From Flavobacterium ammoniigenes (GTDB taxonomy: Bacteria > Bacteroidota > Bacteroidia > Flavobacteriales > Flavobacteriaceae): a stretch of DNA of 64,000 nucleotides. Shown piece by piece: positions 38,104-50,004 of this stretch. The stretch is taken from positions 310,001 to 374,000 of the forward strand of contig NZ_AP025184.1 in assembly GCF_020886055.1 (NCBI RefSeq), in the 5' to 3' direction. How positions within the stretch are numbered: position 1 is the stretch's first letter; every line of letters starts with the position of its first letter. The notes beneath the pieces are model-generated. The model saw only the letters and a program-made list of their open reading frames with translations, searched no databases and was not told where the DNA came from. Made by a program: the position numbers and the translations under genes.

Positions 38104-38739
38104 TTAAAATTTTAACTGATACACATCGTCTAAATCTTTATCCGAACTGATATTCACATCAAGATCGGTGACAAACCCCGAGTTCAATCCATACACCCAA
38201 CCGTGTAAAGTTAAATCTTGACCTTTTTTCCAAGCCGACTGTACTATTGATGTTTTTGCCAAATCAAACACTTGTTCTTTCACATTCAATTCAACAAACT
38301 TATTGAAGCGTTCTGTTTCATCTAGGATAGAATCCAAATAGTGATTGTGCAAACGGTAAACATCTTTGATATGGCGAATCCAATTGTCAATTATCCCAAT
38401 AGAATCATTGCTCATAGCCGCTTTAACCCCACCGCAACCGTAATGACCACAAACTAAAACGTGTTTTACTTTAAGCACATTGACTGCGTAATCTAACACA
38501 CTCAACATATTCATATCAGAATGAATCACCATATTGGCAATATTTCTATGTACAAATACCTCTCCTGGCTTGGCGCCAATGATTTCATTCGCTGGTACTC
38601 GGCTATCTGAACAACCTATCCATAATAAAGGCGGCGTTTGACCTTTCGCCAAATCCTCAAAATAATTGGGGTCTAATTCTAACGATTCTTCTACCCACCT
38701 CTTATTGTTATCCAGTATTTTTTTATAGAATTCTTTCAT
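38104..38739 (-). CDS. Beta-carbonic anhydrase
   Basis: Interconverts CO2 and bicarbonate in the cytoplasm, 211 residues. Zinc ligands and the catalytic dyad are visible as C43, D45 and R47 in IGCSDSRVPANEI, and H99 and C102 in CGHYGCGG. It lies 44 bp after the SulP transporter gene on the same strand, which suggests the two work together on bicarbonate. Confidence 0.96.
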   Translation of the reverse strand: MKEFYKKILDNNKRWVEESLELDPNYFEDLAKGQTPPLLWIGCSDSRVPANEIIGAKPGEVFVHRNIANMVIHSDMNMLSVLDYAVNVLKVKHVLVCGHYGCGGVKAAMSNDSIGIIDNWIRHIKDVYRLHNHYLDSILDETERFNKFVELNVKEQVFDLAKTSIVQSAWKKGQDLTLHGWVYGLNSGFVTDLDVNISSDKDLDDVYQLKF

Positions 38740-38783: not shown

Positions 38784-40430
38784 TTATTCTTTGTCGAAAT
38801 GTTTGACTTCTTTTTGAACCATTACTCTTTTCAACGCATCGTACTCATGAACAATAGTAACATGATTATCATCATTATTTTGTAATTGGTATTCTTTTTT
38901 AAATCCTTTTAGTTTTACTTTAATATGTTCTTCTTTAGCTCTAATTGTTTTGAATTCATGAATCAAATCCAAAATATCATGGGCAATATAAATGGTGTCT
39001 TTGGCATCAATAATCACCTTAGAATTTCCTGGTATTGATTGTAATGTTTCTTTGATAGCCGCTTTATTTAAGAACGAAACTTCCTGAGCTAGATCAATAT
39101 GAATTACATCACCATCTGCATATTCTTCTTTTCTAAAAATATAAGCTCTTTTTAAATTGCCTTTTAAAATAAACACTACGCTAATGATCATTCCGAGCGC
39201 TACACCTTTTAACAAGTCTGTAAAAACTACCGCAATTAAAGTTGCTATAAACGGAATAAACTGGTATTTTCCTTTTTGCCAAAAATGAACAAATGTTGCA
39301 GGCTTTGCTAATTTATACCCTACTAAAAGCAAAACAGCAGCCAGAGTAGCTAAAGGGATTTTATTCAGTAGAAACGGAATCGAAAGCACACTAATTAAAA
39401 GCAAAATACCATGAATAATGGCTGACATTTTGGTTTTGGCTCCTGCATTGTTATTAGCTGAAGTTCGAACAACTACAGAAGTCATTGGCAAACCACCCAA
39501 AAGCGAACTTACAATATTTCCTATACCTTGCGCCTTCAGTTCCACATTAGTATTAGTATATCTTTTTTGAACATCCATTCTATCCGAAGCTTCAATACAC
39601 AATAAGGTTTCGATAGAAGCCACAATTGCAATAGTTAGCCCTACTACCCAAACTTGCGGATTTAAAATGCCTTCAAAATTAGGTGTAACTATAATTTGCT
39701 TAAAATCTTCTATTGAAGACGGGACAGGCAAGGAAACTAAATGTTCTTTAGCGATAGCCAAACTACTTCCTGAATTGACAAAGAATTCATTTAAAACGAT
39801 TCCGGCGATAACTGCCACTAAAGCTCCAGGAATTAATTTTAATTTTTTTAGAAACGATATTTTATCCCAGGCAATCAAAATACACAATGACAATATCGAA
39901 ATCACAATCGAACCTAATTGCACATAATTAAAAACGTGAAGCAAAGAAGAAAAAGTGTTACTCCCATCAGCTTGAATAAAAGATTGGTCGCCTTCAAAAT
40001 CACTATCAAAACCAACGGCATGAGGCAATTGTTTCATAATTATAATGATTCCGATACCAGCTAACATTCCTTCGATTACATTAGTAGGAAAATAATTTGA
40101 AATCGTACCTGCTTTTAAAAATCCAAGAACCAATTGAAATAAACCCGCAATAAAAACAGCAGTTAAAAATACATCAAAGGCACCCAAATCAGTTATAGCA
40201 GTTAAAACGATAGCGGTTAATCCCGCTGCCGGACCTGAAACACTAATATGAGATTGACTTAGATAGCCTACTACAATTCCGCCAATAACTCCGGAAATAA
40301 TTCCGGAAAACAAAGGAGCTCCAGAAGCCATTGCAATTCCTAAACACAAAGGTAGCGCCACCAAAAAAACCACTAAACCTGAAGCAAAATCAGATTTAAA
40401 GTTAGCAAAAAGATTAATTTTTTTTGACAT
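38784..40430 (-). CDS. SulP-family anion transporter, possibly bicarbonate
   Basis: A 548-residue inner-membrane protein with 10-14 membrane helices (FASGLVVFLVALPLCLGIAMASG near the N-terminus; ISVSGPAAGLTAIVL) and a C-terminal STAS domain (about 430-520). SulP proteins carry sulfate, bicarbonate or other anions. The adjacent carbonic anhydrase gene, and the absence of sulfate-assimilation genes, favour bicarbonate. Confidence 0.9.
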   Translation of the reverse strand: MSKKINLFANFKSDFASGLVVFLVALPLCLGIAMASGAPLFSGIISGVIGGIVVGYLSQSHISVSGPAAGLTAIVLTAITDLGAFDVFLTAVFIAGLFQLVLGFLKAGTISNYFPTNVIEGMLAGIGIIIIMKQLPHAVGFDSDFEGDQSFIQADGSNTFSSLLHVFNYVQLGSIVISILSLCILIAWDKISFLKKLKLIPGALVAVIAGIVLNEFFVNSGSSLAIAKEHLVSLPVPSSIEDFKQIIVTPNFEGILNPQVWVVGLTIAIVASIETLLCIEASDRMDVQKRYTNTNVELKAQGIGNIVSSLLGGLPMTSVVVRTSANNNAGAKTKMSAIIHGILLLISVLSIPFLLNKIPLATLAAVLLLVGYKLAKPATFVHFWQKGKYQFIPFIATLIAVVFTDLLKGVALGMIISVVFILKGNLKRAYIFRKEEYADGDVIHIDLAQEVSFLNKAAIKETLQSIPGNSKVIIDAKDTIYIAHDILDLIHEFKTIRAKEEHIKVKLKGFKKEYQLQNNDDNHVTIVHEYDALKRVMVQKEVKHFDKE

Positions 40431-40892: not shown

Positions 40893-41954
40893 CTATCTTT
40901 TTTTCGAAGCTCTATCAATAGTAAATGAGAATTCAGAACCAACACCGTATTCACTTTCTACATATATTTTTTGCTTGTGGGCTTCTACAATATGTTTGAC
41001 AATAGACAACCCTAAACCAGAGCCTCCCTCTGAACGAGAACCGCTTTTATTCACCCTGTAGAATCGTTCAAAAAGTCGTGGAATATTTTGTGATTCTATT
41101 CCTTCACCATTATCTGTTACTCGGACTAATATTTTTTTACTTGTAAAGCCAGTTACCGAAATTTCCGTTTCGCCTCCTTCTTTTCCATACTTAATTGAGT
41201 TTACAATTAAATTAATAATTACCTGTTGTAGCTTATCCTTGTCAGCTGCCACCCACATGGGTTTATTATTATGTTCAAGTACCAATGAAATATTTTTTTT
41301 AGAAGCTTTCATTTCTAACATATCCACAATACTTTGAATTAATTCTACTATGTCAAATTCTGCTATTTCTAAATTGAGTTCACCTGATTCTAACTTACTA
41401 ATCATATCCAAATCCTCAACGATATAAATGAGTCGTTCAACACCCTTTTCGGCGCGATCCAAATATTTTTTCAAAATAGTCTTGTCCTCAAATGCCCCAT
41501 CAGTTAAAGTAGACAAATAACCTTGAACCGTAAATAAGGGCGTTTTTAATTCGTGAGAAACATTGCCTAAAAACTCTCTTCGGTAGTGTTCACGAACTTG
41601 TAACATTTCGATTTCCAACTTTTTATCGGTAGCAAATTTTTTAACCTTTCTTGACAATGTTTCCATATCTGTTGCAATGGGTTGATTGGCTAAGGAAGGT
41701 GCATCCAATAAAGCGACATCATCGTAGATTTTTTTAATTCTGTTGTAAATAAATCTTTCTATTCGGTATTGCAAGACTAAAAAAGAGAATACAAACAAAA
41801 CCATAAAAAAAATGGCACCATAAATCCAAACGGTATCTTTATCATATTTTAACGAAACTCGAAGAAGAATCATCCCAAAAAAAGTCGCAAAAAGACTAAT
41901 TAAAGAGGATGATTTTATAGCAAACTGATAATTTCTTTTAAAATTTTTTTTCAT
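40893..41954 (-). CDS. Sensor histidine kinase (PhoR-like)
   Basis: Inner-membrane kinase of the two-component pair, 353 residues from ATG at 41954 (MKKNFKRNYQF). Two membrane helices (about 12-33 and 44-62) are joined by a very short loop, so there is no periplasmic sensor domain. No PAS domain is seen. The phospho-accepting histidine is in FLGNVSHELKTPLFTVQGYL. ATP-binding boxes are VIINLIVNSIKYGKEGG, VTDNGEGIE and GGSGLGLSIVKHI. An in-frame start at 41987 lies inside a hairpin, so the later ATG is chosen. E. coli PhoR likewise has almost no periplasmic part. Confidence 0.92.
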   Translation of the reverse strand: MKKNFKRNYQFAIKSSSLISLFATFFGMILLRVSLKYDKDTVWIYGAIFFMVLFVFSFLVLQYRIERFIYNRIKKIYDDVALLDAPSLANQPIATDMETLSRKVKKFATDKKLEIEMLQVREHYRREFLGNVSHELKTPLFTVQGYLSTLTDGAFEDKTILKKYLDRAEKGVERLIYIVEDLDMISKLESGELNLEIAEFDIVELIQSIVDMLEMKASKKNISLVLEHNNKPMWVAADKDKLQQVIINLIVNSIKYGKEGGETEISVTGFTSKKILVRVTDNGEGIESQNIPRLFERFYRVNKSGSRSEGGSGLGLSIVKHIVEAHKQKIYVESEYGVGSEFSFTIDRASKKR

Positions 41955-42026: not shown

Positions 42027-42710
42027 CTAGACTTCTAATTTATAGCCCACTCCTTTAATTGTTTTGAAAAAATCATCTCCTATTTTCTCTCTCAATTTTC
42101 GAATGTGAACATCAATTGTTCTTCCGCCTACAATGACATCATTTCCCCAAATTTTATCTAAAATTTCTTCTCTTTTAAATACTTTTCCAGGTTTCGAGGC
42201 TAATAAGTAAAACAATTCAAATTCTTTTCTTGGTAAGGAAATTTCGACCCCATCCTTAATAATAATATACTCCTCTCGATTAATTTCAATTCCACCAACC
42301 GTTAAAGTACCAACGTTTTTTTGTTGATCATTAAAACGTCTTAGCAAAGCGTTTACTTTACTAACCAATAATTTTGGTTTGATTGGTTTACTAATGTAAT
42401 CATCAGCACCTGCATCGAAGCCTGCTACTTGAGTATAATCTTCATTACGAGCGGTAAGAAAGGTAATAATTACATTAGGCAATTCAGGTAGTTTTCTAAT
42501 GATTTCACAGGCCTCGATACCATCCATTTCAGGCATCATGACATCCATGATAATTAAATCTGGCAAGTCCGATTTTGCTTTTGCAACTGCTTCTTTTCCG
42601 TTGGAAGCGGTACAAATTTGATATCCTTCTTGAGATAAATTATACCCCACAATTTCTAAAATATCTGGTTCATCATCAACCAATAAGATTTTAGCTTTAT
42701 TCTTTGCCAT
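42027..42710 (-). CDS. OmpR/PhoB-family response regulator
   Basis: DNA-binding partner of the adjacent kinase, 227 residues. The receiver domain has the acidic pocket (D12, D13), phospho-acceptor D56 in DLIIMDVMMPEMDG and the conserved lysine in ISKPIKP. The C-terminal winged helix is clear (RKEFELFYLLASKPGKVFKREEILDKIWGN; TIDVHIRKLREKIG). This class binds direct repeats spaced 11 bp apart, and such repeats lie immediately upstream. The target is probably the PHO regulon. Confidence 0.93.
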   Translation of the reverse strand: MAKNKAKILLVDDEPDILEIVGYNLSQEGYQICTASNGKEAVAKAKSDLPDLIIMDVMMPEMDGIEACEIIRKLPELPNVIITFLTARNEDYTQVAGFDAGADDYISKPIKPKLLVSKVNALLRRFNDQQKNVGTLTVGGIEINREEYIIIKDGVEISLPRKEFELFYLLASKPGKVFKREEILDKIWGNDVIVGGRTIDVHIRKLREKIGDDFFKTIKGVGYKLEV

Positions 42711-42793
42711 AGTTTACTTTATTTGAATCTAAGTTATACTTATTTAGATTAACAAGTTGTAAATATATAGAAATTTACAAACCGAAAACCGAG

Positions 42794-42873
42794 TTAACCT
42801 AAATTTAATCTAGTAACAATTTGGTAATATTAAGTTATTGAAAATATAACAAAGTGATAACCTCGAAACAACA
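42794..42873 (+). promoter_or_regulatory. Array of 11-bp-phased PHO-box-like repeats
   Basis: Hexamers of type NTAACA start at 42813 (GTAACA), 42824 (GTAATA), 42835 (TTATTG), 42846 (ATAACA), 42857 (ATAACC) and 42868 (ACAACA), each exactly 11 bp apart. A second pair, TTAACC (42794) and TTAATC (42805), has the same spacing in another register. The array lies between the divergent regulator and receptor genes and ends 9 bp before the receptor's -7 box, the usual place for an activator of the PhoB class. Confidence 0.65.
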
Positions 42874-42882
42874 TTGCCGCGG

Positions 42883-42890
42883 TTAATTTG
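42883..42890 (+). promoter_or_regulatory. -7 box of the TonB-dependent receptor gene
   Basis: TTAATTTG, one base off the TAnnTTTG consensus, 23 bases before the ATG at 42913. No TTTG -33 box exists at the right distance; the phased repeats occupy that position. Confidence 0.5.
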
Positions 42891-42912: not shown

Positions 42913-45690
42913 ATGAAATTAAAATTTGTATTAATTACATTATTTATTTGTGCAATAGGTTTCGCACAAACCAAAGGTACTGTTTCAGGTACGCTTTTAG
43001 ACAAAGAATCAAAAAATCAACCGCTGCCTTTTGCTAATGTCCTTATTAAAGGAACTTCAATTGGAGTAAACACTGACATTGATGGAAAATATTCTATCAG
43101 TCTTCCTGCAGGTAATTATACTATCCAATTTAGTTTTGTTGGATATGAAAACATAGAAATGCCAATTTCTATTAAAGCTAATGAAACTCTTGTTATCAAT
43201 AAAACTTTAGGCTCTGGAAACTACACTTTGAAAGATGTAGTAGTTAAAGCCAGTGGTAATAGAGAAAAAGAAACCGTTTTACTTTATGACCAAAAAAAGG
43301 CTGTAGTTATTAAACAGAGTATTGGAGCGCAAGAAATGGCTCGTAAAGGTGTAAGTGATGTTGAAGAAGGTTTAACTAAAGTTACTGGAATTACTAAAGT
43401 AGATGGTAGAGGTCTTTTTGTAAGAGGACTAGAAGACCGATACAACAATTTGTTAATTAACGATTTGGCGGTTCCATCGAACAACCCATTCAAAAAAATA
43501 ATCCCTTTAGACATTTTTCCAACTGATATTGTAAGTGTTATTGATACCTACAAAACTTTCAATACCAATATTTATGGTGATTTTGCTGGAGGAACTTTCA
43601 ATATAGCTACTTCTAAAGGAACTAAAAGCCAATCTAAAATTAATTTTGGTGTAGGATATACTTCTAATAACAACTTAAGAAAATTCCTTACATCTAAAGA
43701 TGCAACCTCAACCGCAGACTTTTTTGGTTTTTCAGGCTCAGAAAGAGACTTCCCAAAAGTATTTGGCAATGTCCCAAGTAATCGTGTGTTAACAGCTAAC
43801 GAAGCTTCGACTCAATTTGGATCAGGATTTGATGTTGAACAAGCTAACTCACCACTAAATACAAGTTTTGGAATTTTAAATTCAGAAAAATTTACAGTTG
43901 GAAAAAATAGCAATTCATTGCAATATTTAGTTTCGTTCAACTTTGACAACAAATACCAATATAGAGAAGGTGTAGATCGTTTTTTTAATGCTGCTCAAGG
44001 AAATTACGATAATGATTTGTTTAACAAACAATACAAATACATCACTAATTCATCTGCATTAGCATCATTGAATTTTAAATCAGAACGATTGAATTTAACT
44101 TCAAATACATTTTATTTAAAATCTACAGAGAACATGATCCAAGATCAATTGGGTTACACCAACTCTGCAACAATCAATAATAATGGTTTTATTAGAATGA
44201 ATCAATTGACTCAATCTGACTTTTTAAATACACAATTGTTTGGTACTTATAAAGTATCTAAAGATGATAGAAAAAATATTAAAGCGGGAGTTTCATTCAC
44301 AAAAACAGGATTTCAATTACCAGATAGAAAATCATTTAAAGGGGTATTATTGGATGATAATACAACTGCGATTAGTTATACAGGAAATAGTTTGTACAGA
44401 CAAACTATGGATGTAGATGGTAAATTCCACGTTTCAAGCATGCTTGAATATTCATGGCTTTTCGGAAAAAAAGACAACAAAGATGCTCATAAATTGACTG
44501 TTGGTTACAATTCATACATTAATAGAATGGACTCAAAATTCAGATTCTTAGTTTCTGATAGAGTGGGTGCCAATGCTGTGTCTTTTAACACAAACAACCC
44601 TGATGCTACATTAGCAAGTGAAATTACAAATGGAAAATTTACTTATAGAGAAGGAACTAATTCTACATATAAAGCAAAATTATTAGAATATCTAAATGCT
44701 GGTTATGCAGATGTAGCTTTTAAATTTAATGATGTATACGAAATGAACTTTGGAGTTAGAGTGGAACAAAGTTTGAGATTAACTAAATACAGAAATCCAG
44801 GTTCATTTAATGATCCTTACCAAAAAAAATCAGTAGAAGATTTAGATATATTACCATCTTTAAATATGAAGTATAAATTTAATGATGCTTCCAACTTTAG
44901 ACTTGCAGCTTCAAAAACCATAACTAGACCTGTAATCATGGAATCATACCCTCTTGAGTTTGTAAACTTAGATGGAACTATTGAAAATGGTAATCCAAAT
45001 GTTGTGAATAGTGATAATTATAATTTTGATTTGAAATATGAATTTTTCCCAACTGCGAAAGAATTACTAGCTGTTACTACTTTTTCAAAACTAATTCAAA
45101 ACCCAATTGAAAGATTGTTTACGCAATCAGCTGGTAGTGGTGGACAAATCATTACATATGACAACTCAAATAAAGCATTGCTTGTGGGTGCAGAGTTAGA
45201 ATTGCTTTTACAACTTGATAGAATTTCTGATAACTTCAAAAATTTATCATTAGGATTTAATACTTCGTTGATGTATTCAAAAGTAACTATCAATAAAAAC
45301 AATACAACTGAAACGAATCCTGACAGAAGATTGCAAGGTGCCTCTCCTTGGTTAATTAACGCTGACTTAAAATACGATTTTGATTTTTCAAGCAATTGGA
45401 ACAATACAGTATCATTAGTCTATAATGTATATGGAAAAAGAATCTTTGCTGTTGGGACAAATGGTTTAGATCATTACTACGAGCAACCTTTCAATAAACT
45501 AGATTTAGTTTGGAGTAATAAAATTGGAAAGAAATGGGATGCGAAATTCTCAATAGATAATATTTTAAATCCAAAATATAGTATCAAATTAGGAGAAGAA
45601 AGTAAACTGCCAATTACTGAGTCAGATTTAACCGTTAAAGATTACACCAGAGGTGTAGGCTTTTCATTAAATGTATCTTATACTTTCTAA
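42913..45690 (+). CDS. TonB-dependent outer-membrane receptor with CarboxypepD_reg-like domain
   Basis: Outer-membrane importer, 925 residues from ATG at 42913. Signal peptide (LKFVLITLFICAIGFAQ), then a CarboxypepD_reg-like domain (about 20-105), the plug (about 125-240, with DRYNNLLINDLAVPSNNP), and a 22-strand barrel ending in aromatic SYTF. No SusD partner follows; instead a beta-helix lipoprotein gene lies 139 bp downstream. Divergence from a PhoP/PhoR-type system and the phased repeats in the promoter suggest induction by phosphate starvation. The substrate is unknown; phosphate or an organophosphate is my inference. Confidence 0.93.
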   Translation: MKLKFVLITLFICAIGFAQTKGTVSGTLLDKESKNQPLPFANVLIKGTSIGVNTDIDGKYSISLPAGNYTIQFSFVGYENIEMPISIKANETLVINKTLGSGNYTLKDVVVKASGNREKETVLLYDQKKAVVIKQSIGAQEMARKGVSDVEEGLTKVTGITKVDGRGLFVRGLEDRYNNLLINDLAVPSNNPFKKIIPLDIFPTDIVSVIDTYKTFNTNIYGDFAGGTFNIATSKGTKSQSKINFGVGYTSNNNLRKFLTSKDATSTADFFGFSGSERDFPKVFGNVPSNRVLTANEASTQFGSGFDVEQANSPLNTSFGILNSEKFTVGKNSNSLQYLVSFNFDNKYQYREGVDRFFNAAQGNYDNDLFNKQYKYITNSSALASLNFKSERLNLTSNTFYLKSTENMIQDQLGYTNSATINNNGFIRMNQLTQSDFLNTQLFGTYKVSKDDRKNIKAGVSFTKTGFQLPDRKSFKGVLLDDNTTAISYTGNSLYRQTMDVDGKFHVSSMLEYSWLFGKKDNKDAHKLTVGYNSYINRMDSKFRFLVSDRVGANAVSFNTNNPDATLASEITNGKFTYREGTNSTYKAKLLEYLNAGYADVAFKFNDVYEMNFGVRVEQSLRLTKYRNPGSFNDPYQKKSVEDLDILPSLNMKYKFNDASNFRLAASKTITRPVIMESYPLEFVNLDGTIENGNPNVVNSDNYNFDLKYEFFPTAKELLAVTTFSKLIQNPIERLFTQSAGSGGQIITYDNSNKALLVGAELELLLQLDRISDNFKNLSLGFNTSLMYSKVTINKNNTTETNPDRRLQGASPWLINADLKYDFDFSSNWNNTVSLVYNVYGKRIFAVGTNGLDHYYEQPFNKLDLVWSNKIGKKWDAKFSIDNILNPKYSIKLGEESKLPITESDLTVKDYTRGVGFSLNVSYTF

Positions 45691-45726
45691 TACTACTTAA
45701 CATTAAAAAAACATTTAGATTTAGTT

Positions 45727-45767
45727 TTAATCACATTTTAATAACAATTTAAATAACTAAAATAAGC
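45727..45767 (+). promoter_or_regulatory. Weak PHO-box-like repeats before the lipoprotein gene
   Basis: TTAATC (45727), TTAATA (45738), ATAACA (45741), ATAACT (45753) and ATAAGC (45762) lie upstream of the -7 box at 45779. Spacing is irregular (11, 3, 12 and 9), so this is the least convincing array of the locus. Confidence 0.35.
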
Positions 45768-45778
45768 ACATCTGAAAG

Positions 45779-45786
45779 TACTTTTG
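45779..45786 (+). promoter_or_regulatory. -7 box of the beta-helix lipoprotein gene
   Basis: A perfect TACTTTTG, 43 bases before the ATG at 45830, suggesting its own transcript in addition to read-through from the receptor gene. Confidence 0.55.
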
Positions 45787-45829
45787 AATTGTTAAAAAAC
45801 ATAAACTAAATTAAATTAAAAAAATTATT

Positions 45830-47032
45830 ATGAAAAAAATCGCATTAAGTATAGCTATCATTGCTGCTGTTTTTACAGGTTGTACTATTGACGACGAAAC
45901 TGAAGTTGTAAAAGTTCCAGTAACTGGAGAAATTACAGGTGATTTAACTGTTTCAAAAACCTATGCTTACGGAAATTATACCCTAAAAGGTTTTGCTAAA
46001 GTTGCAAGTGGTGTAACAATCACTTTTGAAGCTGGATCTACAATAACAGCTGACAAAGCAGATGGTGAAGATGCATTTGTAATCTTAAATGGTGGAAAAT
46101 TAATTGCAGTTGGAACAGCTACTGAACCAATTGTATTTACTGAAAAATCAAAAGTTGCAGGTTCATGGGGTGGTATAATCATGTATGGAAATGCACCTAT
46201 CGTTAATTCGGCTACTAACGCAGCACCTCAAACAGCAACTTCAGAAGATGGACTTGCTTTACCTTATGGTGGTTCTGATGCAGCACATAATGGTGGAACA
46301 TTAAAATATGTGCGTGTTGAATATGCTGGACAAGTTATTACTCAAAACAATAAAGAACAAAATGGTTTCTCATTTTACTCTGTTGGATCAGGTACAACTT
46401 TAGAAAACTTAGTTTCTTATAAAGGAAATGATGACGGTTTCGAATTCTATGGTGGAACTGTTAGTATGAAAAACGCAATTTCTTACGGAAATTCTGATGA
46501 CGCTTTTGACTGGCAAGATGGTTGGAGAGGACAAGAAAATACAAACTGGTATTCTTACCAAGAAGGAGTTGCAAATTATGGTGTAGAAGCTGAAGCTAAA
46601 AGTGTTAACAATGCATTTTGGCCTAAAGTAACTAATATCACTTTGAAAAGAGCTGCTGGTACTGCTACTGAAGCTCAATCAGAAATCCAATTAGATGCTT
46701 TCCAATTCAAAAAAGAAGGTAATGGAGAATACAGTAACATCGTGATTGATGGGTTCAAAAACCAAACTACTCCAACTGCTAAAAACGGTGGTGCAATTCA
46801 AATTTTAGATTTAACAACTTTCAACAACCAAGTTGTAGCTGGAAAAATCAAATTAACAAACGTTACCATCACAAACACTGACAATACGTTTATTTCAGGA
46901 GCGTCAACATTCACTGTATCTGCAACTAGCTTTAATCCTGCTTCAAACTGGGCAACTTCTACTACTGCTACAGGTGCTGCATTAACAAATGGAGCTTGGT
47001 CTACTGTTAACGGAGCTACTTTGATCAAATAA
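45830..47032 (+). CDS. Surface or periplasmic beta-helix lipoprotein
   Basis: A 400-residue lipoprotein with lipobox FTGCTI (Cys about 18). The mature part is a right-handed parallel beta-helix: a TLKGFAKVASGVTITFEAGSTI capping strand, then repeated short turns such as LKYVRVEYAG, LENLVSYKGNDDGFEFYGG and MKNAISYGNSDDAFDWQ. The two NDDGFEF / SDDAFDW turns carry clustered acidic residues, as in binding or catalytic clefts of this fold. Older databases label some relatives as transporters, which the sequence does not support. Position after a TonB receptor suggests it is the binding partner. Confidence 0.82.
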   Translation: MKKIALSIAIIAAVFTGCTIDDETEVVKVPVTGEITGDLTVSKTYAYGNYTLKGFAKVASGVTITFEAGSTITADKADGEDAFVILNGGKLIAVGTATEPIVFTEKSKVAGSWGGIIMYGNAPIVNSATNAAPQTATSEDGLALPYGGSDAAHNGGTLKYVRVEYAGQVITQNNKEQNGFSFYSVGSGTTLENLVSYKGNDDGFEFYGGTVSMKNAISYGNSDDAFDWQDGWRGQENTNWYSYQEGVANYGVEAEAKSVNNAFWPKVTNITLKRAAGTATEAQSEIQLDAFQFKKEGNGEYSNIVIDGFKNQTTPTAKNGGAIQILDLTTFNNQVVAGKIKLTNVTITNTDNTFISGASTFTVSATSFNPASNWATSTTATGAALTNGAWSTVNGATLIK

Positions 47033-47128: not shown

Positions 47129-47473
47129 TTAATTTAAAGCAACTGTTCCATTGCTCCATTTTTTTACTGATTGAATATTGTCTTTAGAAAAATCTACTTC
47201 AGACAAACCTTCATTGTTCCAGAAAAACCAGTTACCTACTTTTTCACCTTTGGCATACTCAGCAATAGCAATCTTTAATCCGTTCTCATTGTACGAAATC
47301 CATTTTCCGTCTAATTTACCATCAACAAAAAATCCTTCTTGTTGCACTTTTCCATTCTCATGGTAATACGTTGCTTTTACTATCCCGTTTACTTCTTCTA
47401 ATTTAGGCTCTCTATTTTGTGCAAAAGTTACACTAGATACTACTAACACTGCAATCATCATAATTTTTTTCAT
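47129..47473 (-). CDS. Exported MORN-variant repeat protein (YwqK-like)
   Basis: A 114-residue protein with a signal peptide (MIAVLVVSSVTFAQ). Three or four MORN-variant repeats are visible: YYHENGKVQQEGFFVDGKLD, GKWISYNENGLKIAIAEYAKG and GNWFFWNNEGLSEV. Proteins of this kind are sometimes annotated as YwqK antitoxins, but no toxin gene is nearby and it is exported, so that label would mislead. A -7 box and PHO-box-like repeats precede it. Confidence 0.82.
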   Translation of the reverse strand: MKKIMMIAVLVVSSVTFAQNREPKLEEVNGIVKATYYHENGKVQQEGFFVDGKLDGKWISYNENGLKIAIAEYAKGEKVGNWFFWNNEGLSEVDFSKDNIQSVKKWSNGTVALN

Positions 47474-47514: not shown

Positions 47515-47522
47515 GACATTAA

Positions 47523-47572
47523 TTTACATCTACCAAACATTTACTTAACAATTTGGTAACATTAGGATAAAA
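47523..47572 (-). promoter_or_regulatory. 11-bp-phased PHO-box-like repeats before the MORN-like gene
   Basis: Read on the plus strand, TTTACA (47523), CAAACA (47534), TTAACA (47545), GTAACA (47556) and ATAAAA (47567) are each exactly 11 bp apart. The core AACAATTTGGTAA is identical to the receptor promoter array. They end 8 bases from the -7 box of the minus-strand gene. Confidence 0.6.
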
Positions 47573-47741
47573 ATATACTTGGTTTTTCATTAAAAATTAT
47601 ATAAATACTTGATTTATAATAATTTACAATGTTAAATTAAATTTAATAAAATAAGATTATTTTTCGCCCAAACGATTTTTCTCTCTTTTTAGTATACTTA
47701 CTTAATAAAAAATTGTATTTTTATGCAGTTACTATAAGCAT

Positions 47742-48074
47742 ATGAAGAAGTTGTATTTCATTCCTTTATTGTTTTTGCTTTTATTTACTTTGAATGTTAC
47801 AGCTCAAGAAGTAAAACAGCAATCCAAAATACAAGAGTCAGCCATTGAAGGTTTGAGCTTGTATCCAAATCCTGTAACAAATGGGAGAGTTTATATTGCT
47901 ACTAAAAATGATGCAGAAAAAGAAATTCAAATTTTTGATGTTTTAGGTAAAAAAGTATTTCAATCCCAATTAAATACAAAAGAATTAAACATCTCGTCTC
48001 TTTCACCTGGTGTGTACATCATCAAAATAAGAGAAGAAGAAAGTACTGCCACACGAAAATTAATCATACGTTAA
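47742..48074 (+). CDS. Mini-protein with a T9SS type A sorting domain
   Basis: 110 residues: a signal peptide (YFIPLLFLLLFTLNVTAQ), about 18 polar residues, then a complete C-terminal type A sorting domain (LSLYPNPVTNGRVYI; IQIFDVLGKKVFQ; LSPGVYIIKI; KLIIR). The protein is therefore almost only a sorting signal, with little cargo. It should be exported through the type IX secretion system. A -7-like box TATTTTTA lies at 47716-47723. Confidence 0.85.
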   Translation: MKKLYFIPLLFLLLFTLNVTAQEVKQQSKIQESAIEGLSLYPNPVTNGRVYIATKNDAEKEIQIFDVLGKKVFQSQLNTKELNISSLSPGVYIIKIREEESTATRKLIIR

Positions 48075-48122: not shown

Positions 48123-48161
48123 GTAATGATTTCGTAATATTTGGTAAACAACCCAATAACA
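48123..48161 (+). promoter_or_regulatory. PHO-box-like repeats before the metallophosphoesterase-glycosyltransferase pair
   Basis: GTAATG (48123), GTAATA (48134), TAAACA (48145) and ATAACA (48156) are 11 bp apart. The last ends 9 bases before a -7-like box, the same geometry as at the TonB receptor promoter. Confidence 0.55.
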
Positions 48162-48170
48162 CACTCTTTT

Positions 48171-48178
48171 TATTTTCG
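48171..48178 (+). promoter_or_regulatory. -7-like box of the metallophosphoesterase gene
   Basis: TATTTTCG, one base off the consensus TAnnTTTG, 12 bases before the ATG at 48191. There is no -33 TTTG. Confidence 0.45.
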
Positions 48179-48190
48179 TAAAAACATTTT

Positions 48191-49009
48191 ATGAAAAAGA
48201 AAAGAAAACTCCCTTTAGTAGTTTTAAGCGATATACATTTAGGCACTTACGGCTGTCATGCAAATGAATTAGTGTCTTATCTAAAATCAATTCAACCCGA
48301 AATGTTGGTCCTTAACGGAGACATTATCGATATTTGGAATTTCACTAAAAGCTATTTCCCAGCTTCACATATGAATGTATTGCGACAAATTTTAAAAATG
48401 TCCAATCAAGGAACCAAAGTAGTTTACATTACTGGTAACCATGACGAAGCTCTCCGTAAATACTCTGACACCAATCTAGGTAATATTGAATTGGTGGACA
48501 AACTTATCTTAGAACTCGACGAAAAGAAAATTTGGATTTTTCATGGAGATGTGTTTGATTCATCTACAAAAGGATATGCCAAAATAATTGCAAAATTAGG
48601 AGGCAAAGGCTATGATTTATTGATACTTATAAATACCTTTTTGAATTGGCTACTTGTATTAGTTGGAAAAGAAAAGAGAAGTTTTTCTAAAAAAATTAAG
48701 GATAGTGTAAAAAAAGCCGTGGCTTTCATCTCCAATTTTGAAACCACTGCAGCTGAAATTGCTATAGAAAAAAAATACGACTATGTGATTTGCGGTCATA
48801 TTCACAAACCACAAATGAAAGAAGTATCCAATGAAAATGGAAAAGTTATGTATTTAAACAGTGGCGATTGGGTAGAAAATTTAACTGCATTAGAATACAA
48901 CAAAAAGAAATGGAGACTCTATTATTATCAAAAAATAGATTATACCAATCAAACAGAGTCTATTGACGATGCCATAATCAACGACATTGTAAGTAAAATT
49001 TTAGCTTAA
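48191..49009 (+). CDS. Metallophosphoesterase, PlcP-like (LpxH superfamily)
   Basis: 272 residues. All calcineurin-type metal motifs are present: VLSDIHLG (D14, H16), NGDIID (D44), TGNHDEA (N83, H84), FHGD (H118) and CGHIHKP (H203, H205). The GCHANELVSYL stretch after the first motif and GTKVVYITGNHDEALR resemble the PlcP group, usually annotated as UDP-2,3-diacylglucosamine diphosphatase, that removes phospholipid head groups during phosphate starvation, rather than classical LpxH. A hydrophobic stretch (about 142-160) could hold it at the membrane. It is separated by 5 bp from a glycosyltransferase gene. The PlcP role is inference. Confidence 0.8.
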   Translation: MKKKRKLPLVVLSDIHLGTYGCHANELVSYLKSIQPEMLVLNGDIIDIWNFTKSYFPASHMNVLRQILKMSNQGTKVVYITGNHDEALRKYSDTNLGNIELVDKLILELDEKKIWIFHGDVFDSSTKGYAKIIAKLGGKGYDLLILINTFLNWLLVLVGKEKRSFSKKIKDSVKKAVAFISNFETTAAEIAIEKKYDYVICGHIHKPQMKEVSNENGKVMYLNSGDWVENLTALEYNKKKWRLYYYQKIDYTNQTESIDDAIINDIVSKILA

Positions 49010-49014
49010 GCCAA

Positions 49015-50004
49015 ATGAAAATATTTTACGCTATTCAAGCTACCGGAAATGGACATATCAGTCGCGCGATGCAATTGTATCCGTATTTACAGAAATTTGG
49101 TGAAGTCGACTTCTTCATGAGTGGCAGTAATGCTAGTCTAGCGATTGACTTACCCGTAAAATTTAAAAGCCAAGGCTGCAGTTTATTTTATAGTAAATGT
49201 GGCGGATTGGATTATTGGAAAATTGCCAAAAATATTCGCCCTTTACAAATGCTTAAAGAAGCAAAAGCATTACCACTAAAAGATTACGATGTAATTATCA
49301 ATGACTTTGATTCCATTACTTCTTTAGCATGTAAATTGCAAAAGGTGCATTCTGTACAATTGGGTCACCAAGCTAGTTTTGTATCAAAGCATACACCAAG
49401 ACCTGACAAGAAAAGCATAATGGGAGAAACAATTTTAAAACATTATGCCTCAGCACCCAAAAATATTGGATTGCATTTTGAAAAATACGATTCGTTTATT
49501 GTGCCTCCTATTATTAAAGAGGAGATTCAGCAAGCTAATCCTAAAGATTTAGGTCATATTTCGGTCTATTTGCCTTCGTTTGACGTATCCTGTTTAGAAA
49601 AAGCGTTTCGTAGCTTACCCAATCAAGAATTTCATTGGTTTTTGGGCGACATAAAAACAAAACAAAAATTAGGGAACATCACCTATTATCCGGTAAATCA
49701 AGCTGATTTTAACGAAAGTCTAATCAATTGTCATGGAATAATTACTGGCGGTGGATTTGAAACTCCAGCAGAAGCTTTGTTCCTTAGAAAAAAAATACTA
49801 AGCATCCCGATTCAAAACCACTACGAACAAGAATGTAATGCTGCGGCATTGAAGAAAATGGGCGTACCTGTGGTTTATGAAGTCGGTGATGATTTTGATA
49901 CCATCATCCAAAACTGGCTTTCAACAGATACTCCCATGCCTTTGATTCAAGCCAATGATATCAATACTACTTTACAGTATTTATTTGATACTTATAAAGA
50001 CTAA
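49015..50004 (+). CDS. GT28-like glycosyltransferase, candidate diacylglycerol glucosyl- or galactosyltransferase
   Basis: 329 residues in two Rossmann domains of the GT-B fold. The N-terminal loop ATGNGHISRAMQ (about 9-20) and the donor-binding GGGFETPAEALFLRKK (about 245-260) followed by NHYEQECNAAAL match MurG, plant MGD and related GT28/GT1 enzymes. No membrane helix is seen, so it is probably peripheral. It starts 5 bp after the PlcP-like gene. Together they could turn phospholipid into diacylglycerol and then into glycolipid. The acceptor is not shown by sequence. Confidence 0.8.
   Translation: MKIFYAIQATGNGHISRAMQLYPYLQKFGEVDFFMSGSNASLAIDLPVKFKSQGCSLFYSKCGGLDYWKIAKNIRPLQMLKEAKALPLKDYDVIINDFDSITSLACKLQKVHSVQLGHQASFVSKHTPRPDKKSIMGETILKHYASAPKNIGLHFEKYDSFIVPPIIKEEIQQANPKDLGHISVYLPSFDVSCLEKAFRSLPNQEFHWFLGDIKTKQKLGNITYYPVNQADFNESLINCHGIITGGGFETPAEALFLRKKILSIPIQNHYEQECNAAALKKMGVPVVYEVGDDFDTIIQNWLSTDTPMPLIQANDINTTLQYLFDTYKD

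What the first reader, a model, noticed from the sequence alone, without database searches (positions are those of the whole stretch)
42794..42873. Eight NTAAC-type repeats, six in an unbroken 11-bp phase, between a PhoP-type regulator and a TonB receptor
Hexamers begin at 42813, 42824, 42835, 42846, 42857 and 42868, each 11 bp apart, and four of the six contain TAAC or TAAT. Another pair (42794, 42805) has the same spacing. PhoB/PhoP-class regulators bind direct repeats with 11-bp period; the Bacillus subtilis and cyanobacterial boxes are TTAACA- and CTTAACC-like. The array ends 9 bp before a -7 box that has no -33 box. I infer a PHO box for this genus, acting on the receptor and perhaps on the regulator itself.
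Basis: partly seen in the sequence, partly recalled or inferred. Interest (0 to 1): 0.78.

Follow-up and report, generated by a model that had tools for sequence, protein, structure and literature searches.

The report
Flavobacterial phosphate-regulator (PhoB) DNA operator
The repeats are very probably the landing strip of the phosphate-starvation regulator PhoB in Flavobacterium: an evenly spaced row of short DNA words, kept at a fixed distance from the promoter in relatives and found in front of several phosphate genes.

Summary
The array is real and conserved. In 49 of 59 Flavobacterium-group loci read, a homologous receptor stands next to the regulator. In these 49 plus the window, TAAY pairs 11 bp apart number 131 against 5.0 in shuffles, and the layout 0,11|19,30,41,52,63,74 with its 8-bp step is conserved. 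In the 45 of 50 with a recognisable -7 box, that box always starts 14 bp after the last slot, and a -33 TTTG is found in 2 of 45. 11-bp-phased repeats also precede pstS, DUF47-pitA, a plcP-like gene and two porin O/P genes. A pattern of three half-sites plus -7 box hits 64 times against 9 for its reversed control in 61 genomes; without the promoters it was modelled on, 25 against 9. In print, the corresponding F. johnsoniae locus is induced by phosphate depletion, and Riemerella PhoP binds TTTAACA. Best reading: a PhoB operator replacing the -33 contact of the receptor promoter. Against: bare repeats are not enriched genome-wide. Binding and phosphate control in this strain are inferred. New member of a known kind.

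The parts
40893..41954 (-). Histidine kinase, PhoR-like
   Evidence: HisKA + HATPase_c; nearest NCBIfam models PnpS, WalK and PhoR, all below their cut-offs
42027..42710 (-). Response regulator, PhoB type
   Evidence: Response_reg + Trans_reg_C; best NCBIfam models TIGR02154 PhoB (208 bits, cut-off 296) and NF053854 PhoB (205 bits, cut-off 270), both below cut-off
42760..42767 (-). Putative -7 box (TATATTTA) of the regulator gene
   Evidence: A minus-strand TAnnTTTR-like word lies 35-37 bp from slot 0 in 41 of 50 loci (the word was chosen after looking at the sequences)
42794..42810 (+). Sub-array 1: half-sites TTAACC and TTAATC, 11 bp apart
   Evidence: slot 0 is TAAY in 36 and TTAC in 11 of 50, slot 11 is TAAY in 43 of 50
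42813..42873 (+). Sub-array 2: six half-sites at 11 bp (42813, 42824, 42835, 42846, 42857, 42868)
   Evidence: TAAY in 46, 44, 1, 42, 48 and 9 of 50 loci; slot 41 is a xxAAC-type site, slot 74 is TTAC in 27 of 50
42883..42890 (+). -7 box TTAATTTG of the receptor promoter, no -33 box
   Evidence: Starts 14 bp after the last slot in 45 of 45 loci with a box (5 of 50 have none by the pattern); TTTG in the -33 neighbourhood in 2 of 45
42913..45690 (+). TonB-dependent receptor with CarboxypepD_reg-like domain
   Evidence: gene order as F. johnsoniae PhoR-PhoB-Tbdt-FII, Fjoh_0543-0546 (PMC8115612); orthology not tested
45830..47032 (+). Lipoprotein, FII-like by position
   Evidence: No Pfam or NCBIfam match; tblastn hits (E <= 1e-10) in 107 fetched loci, overlapping loci counted apart; an 11-bp TAAY pair also lies in its own upstream region in the window and 11 relative stretches
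48123..48161 (+). Second candidate operator: GTAATG, GTAATA, TAAACA, ATAACA on the 11-bp grid
   Evidence: Only hit of a grid scan of the window on both strands; reversed control 0
48171..48178 (+). -7-like box TATTTTCG, 14 bp after the last half-site and 20 bp before the ATG
48191..49009 (+). Metallophosphoesterase, candidate plcP (lipid remodelling)
   Evidence: PF12850/PF00149; LpxH models match far below cut-off; the name PlcP is an inference
49015..50004 (+). Glycosyltransferase downstream in the same direction, candidate glycolipid synthase
   Evidence: PF13528, TIGR00661 below cut-off

Best explanation
42794-42873 is the operator (PHO box array) of the PhoB-type response regulator encoded next to it. 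Shown: a conserved 11-bp grid of TTAACA-like half-sites, in two registers (2 + 6) separated by a conserved 8-bp step, locked 14 bp upstream of a -7 box that lacks a -33 box; phased repeats of the same kind before other phosphate genes. Inferred: phosphorylated PhoB binds head-to-tail along the half-sites, its promoter-proximal subunits take the place of the missing -33 contact and recruit RNA polymerase to the receptor-lipoprotein promoter at low phosphate; the upstream pair probably serves the divergent phoB gene (autoregulation).
For: Positions. Conservation with shuffled controls. Same architecture in L164, L168 and L180 (other genera, receptor found) and L170; an 11-bp TAAY pair within 150 bp upstream of the regulator in 26 of 29 other-genus loci and 15 of the 25 loci, of which 23 are from other families. 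Grid fixed to the -7 box: TAAY at -25 (43), -36 (41), -58 (39), -69 (41) of 45 at the receptor; at -14 (9), -25 (10), -36 (11) of the 11 of 19 PstS loci with a box; at -24 and -35 (21 each of 30) at DUF47-pitA. 11-bp pair before plcP-like genes in 9 of 9; grids before porin O/P genes in G043 and G044. Pattern of grid + -7 box 64 vs 9 reversed control: 30 near this regulator, 9 at pstS, 1 at pitA. In print: F. johnsoniae low-Pi transcript change, FC column, PhoB 3.06, Tbdt 8.02, FII 9.91 (PMC8115612, passages); Riemerella PhoP motif TTTAACA and EMSA at -156 to -121 of phoPR (PMC9603813, passages and section 5); the E. coli box lies 10 bp upstream of the -10 box and the cyanobacterial box is tandem CTTAACCT, 8 bp + 3 bp (PMC1906773, passages).
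Against: Bare repeat patterns are not enriched: 3xTAAY 13 vs 21 control in this genome, TTAACAN5TTAACA 246 vs 285 in 61 genomes. The window's own copy is weaker than many: slots 41 and 74 read TTATTG and ACAACA, and the strict grid + -7 pattern does not match this genome (0 hits). The next two model hits in this genome (L191, L192) stand before no recognisable phosphate gene. At pitA, in 19 of the 26 loci with a pair an open frame runs on to a stop inside the second half-site, so that conservation may be partly coding; L210 (this genome), L216 and L239 have no such frame. At the plcP-like relatives the pair is there but its distance to a -7 box is not constant. 24 of the 64 pattern hits are unassigned by position; one of these was followed up and is a porin O/P promoter. 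No binding or expression data exist for this genome.
Confidence: 0.85

Rival explanations
1. The array is the operator of another OmpR/PhoB-type regulator with a similar half-site, and the phosphate link is incidental.
For: OmpR-family regulators share the direct-repeat mode (recalled); two paralogues that align over nearly the full length at 34-35% identity in this genome; the Riemerella motif was found similar to that of ArcA (PMC9603813).
Against: The array adjoins this regulator in the 50 loci with the receptor (46 were in register for the model), 8 of 9 loci without a receptor hit keep an 11-bp pair, and phased repeats precede pstS, pitA, plcP-like and porin O/P genes.
Confidence: 0.08
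2. The array regulates the regulator gene only (feedback), and the receptor is driven otherwise.
For: 11-bp phased TAAY remain upstream of the regulator where no receptor homologue was found: 8 of 9 such genus loci, and 26 of 29 other-genus loci, of which only 3 gave a receptor hit in the stretch held; Riemerella EMSA upstream of phoPR.
Against: The distance to the receptor -7 box is invariant (45 of 45) and the half-sites point towards the receptor; the receptor is strongly induced in F. johnsoniae.
Confidence: 0.05
3. Compositional chance or intrinsic DNA curvature in an AT-rich intergenic region.
For: AT-rich DNA; bare repeats are common.
Against: 131 vs 5.0 expected pairs, position-specific profile, fixed promoter distance, spacings off the layout far less frequent.
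Confidence: 0.02

Closest known systems
E. coli PhoB PHO box
   Same: Direct repeats with 11-bp period; last repeat about 10 bp upstream of the proximal promoter box (PMC1906773 and PMC4415409, passages)
   Different: Half-site TTAACA-like instead of CTGTCAT; eight half-sites in two registers; Bacteroidota -7 box (TAnnTTTG type, consensus recalled) instead of the sigma-70 -10 box
Cyanobacterial SphR PHO box
   Same: At least three tandem CTTAACCT repeats of 8 bp, predicted with 3-bp linkers, i.e. 11-bp period (PMC1906773, passages)
   Different: Other phylum; no 2+6 layout with 8-bp step described in the passages read
Riemerella anatipestifer PhoP binding motif (also a flavobacterium in the wide sense; taxonomy recalled)
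   Same: Most conserved letters TTTAACA; binds upstream of its own operon and of a TonB receptor gene (PMC9603813, passages and section 5)
   Different: Reported as a motif similar to ArcA's; in what I read no 11-bp array, promoter distance or phosphate operator is described; orthology of the two regulators not tested here
Bacteroides fragilis PhoB at pstC
   Same: PhoB of the phylum binds a phosphate promoter by EMSA (PMC3547664, passages)
   Different: The words consensus and motif do not occur in its main text

Membership tests
PHO box (PhoB/PhoP operator) | Tandem direct repeats of about 6-8 bp at 11-bp period | tested here: met
PHO box (PhoB/PhoP operator) | Located about 10 bp upstream of the proximal promoter box, distal box missing | tested here: met
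   9 bp from the last hexamer; fixed distance in 45 of 45 with a box; TTTG at -33 in 2 of 45. The promoter itself is predicted, not mapped
PHO box (PhoB/PhoP operator) | Occurs before several phosphate-acquisition genes of the same organism | tested here: met
   DUF47-pitA and plcP-like operon in this genome; pstS and porin O/P in relatives. This genome has no pstS over the family cut-off and no PhoX match
   13 vs 21; 246 vs 285. With the -7 box added, 64 vs 9 in the genus, but 0 hits in this genome
PHO box (PhoB/PhoP operator) | Bound by PhoB, phosphate-dependent | not testable with these tools
   Only relatives in print: EMSA in Riemerella, low-Pi induction in F. johnsoniae
PhoB response regulator | Receiver + winged-helix output domain; match to a PhoB equivalog model | tested here: inconclusive
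   Domains present; PhoB models are the best two hits but below cut-off

The most novel reading that the evidence does not exclude
Flavobacteriales share a two-register PhoB operator (2 + 6 half-sites with a conserved 8-bp step) that works as a two-way switch: the six-site run replaces the -33 contact of the receptor promoter, while the out-of-phase pair, at a conserved 35-37 bp from the regulator's own -7 box, sets autoregulation. A fixed grid-to-minus-7 rule (half-sites at -14, -25, -36 ...) would define the phosphate regulon of the group.
Probability: 0.4. Interest if true: 0.62.

Novelty: new member of a known kind. Interest (0 to 1): 0.5.

Why it matters
The low-phosphate response of Flavobacterium (receptors, lipoproteins, phosphatases) is known from omics (PMC8115612), but in the paper searches made here (listings, with passages of some papers) I saw none that defines a PHO box for the genus. 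The grid rule found here gives a testable operator and a way to predict the regulon in a group that mobilises organic phosphorus in soil and water, and it suggests how a PhoB-type activator could serve promoters of the Bacteroidota -7/-33 type.

Tried and rejected
Bare-repeat patterns genome-wide: no enrichment. Sequence model of the six-site run in this genome: the array stands out (33.7 bits); of the ten best places after it that I looked at (16.5 to 10.9 bits), one precedes a phosphate operon (DUF47-pitA, 10.9 bits, E 1.1) and one lies in this locus (window 47518). As a control I took 256 ORFs from 20 relative stretches and the window; 54 had an 11-bp pair, more than at any other distance tested (9 to 34), but by position 18 of the 54 are the receptor genes and 12 the lipoprotein genes (in the rows shown, 8 of the 11 relatives match it by tblastn; 3 are by place only), and 12 are a 224-aa-type gene with a TAATaaaattaTAAT element that is probably unrelated (8 looked at; 4 by size and place). 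So it is a poor control, and I rely on shuffles, reversed patterns and the weak PstS-like group (0 of 11). PhoX family: 11 of 61 genomes, none in this one; upstream regions not analysed. The small T9SS-tail gene at 47742: no grid upstream in 16 relatives (at most 1 of 4 slots).

Rows left out: of 60 genus relatives with the regulator, G003 was not fetched (match at a contig end), leaving 59; 10 of these had no receptor hit upstream (L063 ends before the region). For model R1, 46 of the 50 arrays were used (L018, L020, L023, L026 dropped as out of register). For plcP, 8 of 14 tblastn hits were used (the other 6 lack the 5' end). Of the 19 PstS loci L300-L318, 17 are over the family cut-off and 2 (L317, L318) below, although my scripts label the whole group as over it.

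Full report
The window lies in a 2,263,087-base single-contig genome. The nearest named matches of its regulator are mostly Flavobacterium (80 loci); the genus of the window is inferred from that. The array stands between a PhoB-type response regulator with its histidine kinase on the minus strand and a TonB-dependent receptor followed by a lipoprotein on the plus strand.

Conservation. The regulator is present in 61 of 61 genus genomes searched. I read 59 relative loci; 49 have a homologue of the receptor divergently upstream. In these 49 plus the window, TAAY pairs 11 bp apart number 131 against 5.0 (s.d. 2.4) in dinucleotide shuffles; the mean template score is 5.4 of 8 against 1.6. These genomes are related, so the shuffles overstate the independence of the counts. 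A leave-one-out position-weight fit returns eight conserved slots at 0, 11, 19, 30, 41, 52, 63 and 74, so the 8-bp step between second and third half-site is conserved as well. Slot 41 is a weaker xxAAC-type site and slot 74 is TTAC in 27 of 50. The -7 box starts 14 bp after slot 74 in 45 of the 45 loci in which a box was recognised (5 of 50 had none by the pattern); its second base is T rather than A in all 45, and TTTG in the -33 neighbourhood occurs in 2 of 45. On the other side, a TAnnTTTR-like word of the regulator lies 35-37 bp from slot 0 in 41 of 50 (the word was chosen by eye first). The consensus of the Bacteroidota promoter (-7 TAnnTTTG, -33 TTTG) is recalled, not taken from a call.

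Beyond the genus, the regulator is in 77 of 80 Flavobacteriaceae genomes, one per genus (E <= 1e-70), and in 46 of 60 genomes of the order (E <= 1e-50). Of 29 loci from other genera, 26 have an 11-bp TAAY pair within 150 bp upstream of the regulator (other distances: 1 to 14 of 29), in several as TAACattaaggTAAC followed by a TTACA in phase, where no receptor was found in the stretch held. Of the 25 loci (23 from other families) it is 15 (other distances 2 to 6).

Other phosphate genes. The DUF47-pitA operon of this genome (PF01865 and PF01384) has TTAACAATAGCTTAACA 47 bp upstream of its start. Of 30 genus loci, this genome included, 26 have an 11-bp pair. In 19 of these 26 an open frame runs on to a stop inside the second half-site, so the words could be kept as coding; L210 (this genome), L216 and L239 have no such frame, in L211 and L234 the frame ends at the first half-site, and L236 is too short to tell. 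Of 19 PstS loci (17 over the family cut-off), 13 have the pair and 11 have a -7 box, with TAAY at -36 (11), -25 (10) and -14 (9). The weak PstS-like group has 0 of 11. In the window itself a scan for three of four half-sites on the grid with a -7 box found one place, 48123-48178, and none in the reversed control; the array in question does not pass that scan, because two of its four proximal slots are off consensus. The place precedes a metallophosphoesterase and a glycosyltransferase, a pair that resembles the published plcP-glycosyltransferase operon for lipid remodelling at low phosphate (PMC4796936, passages); that paper also reports putative Pho boxes near plcP. Eight of eight plcP-like relatives and the window have the 11-bp pair, but in the relatives its distance to a -7 box varies. 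A porin O/P gene in G044 (PF07396) and one in G043 (named by me from its sequence) have full grids.

Regulon-wide test. Bare repeats fail: 13 against 21 reversed-control hits in this genome, 246 against 285 in 61 genomes. Three half-sites plus the -7 box at the fixed distance give 64 against 9 in the same 61 genomes: 30 within 300 bp of the regulator, 9 at pstS, 1 at DUF47-pitA and 24 others, one of which is the G043 porin promoter. I wrote the pattern after seeing the receptor and pstS promoters, so the part not seen before is 25 against 9, and some of these 25 are the same site in related genomes. This genome has no hit with that strict pattern.

What it works like and what it is. The anatomy is that of a PHO box: 11-bp direct repeats ending about 10 bp upstream of the proximal promoter box, with the distal box missing. 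E. coli and cyanobacterial boxes are described with the period, and the E. coli box with the distance (PMC1906773, PMC4415409, passages). In F. johnsoniae the same gene order (Fjoh_0543-0546) responds to phosphate depletion: transcript FC values 0.76 (PhoR, adjusted p 0.056), 3.06 (PhoB), 8.02 (Tbdt), 9.91 (FII); the table heads the column FC, and the text uses log2FC (PMC8115612, passages). In Riemerella, DAP-seq of PhoP gave TTTAACA as the most conserved letters and EMSA showed binding at -156 to -121 of phoPR (PMC9603813, passages and section 5); the window's array is at -84 to -163 of its regulator. I did not test that the Riemerella PhoP is the orthologue.

So the array is most likely the PhoB operator of this genus. 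Activation of the receptor by replacing the -33 contact is the favoured mechanism; the role of the 2-site sub-array in autoregulation is a weaker inference, since the half-sites point away from the regulator gene. It is a new member of a known kind with a long, two-register layout. In the paper searches made I saw no description of such a box for Flavobacterium.

Noticed in passing
window 47518-47573: A further pair TTAACaatttggTAACattag, third-best place of the array model after the array itself (14.8 bits), lies between the MORN-variant gene (47129-47473, minus) and a T9SS-tail gene; the same words occur upstream of the T9SS-tail homologue in L417.
   Followed up: partly
window 45691-45829: TAAY words also precede the lipoprotein gene; 11 of 20 relative stretches (one of the 20 covers the other side of the locus) have an 11-bp pair there, so the lipoprotein may have its own PhoB site.
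   Followed up: partly
L163, L166, L172, L188 upstream of the regulator: Where no receptor was found, the divergent side shows a TTGGCAT-N5-TTG word that resembles a sigma-54 promoter (consensus recalled).
   Followed up: no
G000:C1:1899922-1899964 (L191) and 2225003-2225042 (L192): Next-best model hits in this genome (16.5 and 16.3 bits), near genes with no evident phosphate role.
   Followed up: no
L402:10937-11608 and similar ORFs in 11 other relative stretches: A 224-aa-type gene some kilobases from the regulator has a TAATaaaattaTAAT element with 11-bp spacing; probably unrelated.
   Followed up: partly
window 38784-40430 and 38104-38739: A SulP-type permease (PF00916) next to a gene that looks like a beta-carbonic anhydrase (named from its sequence only), suggesting a bicarbonate uptake pair.
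   Followed up: no
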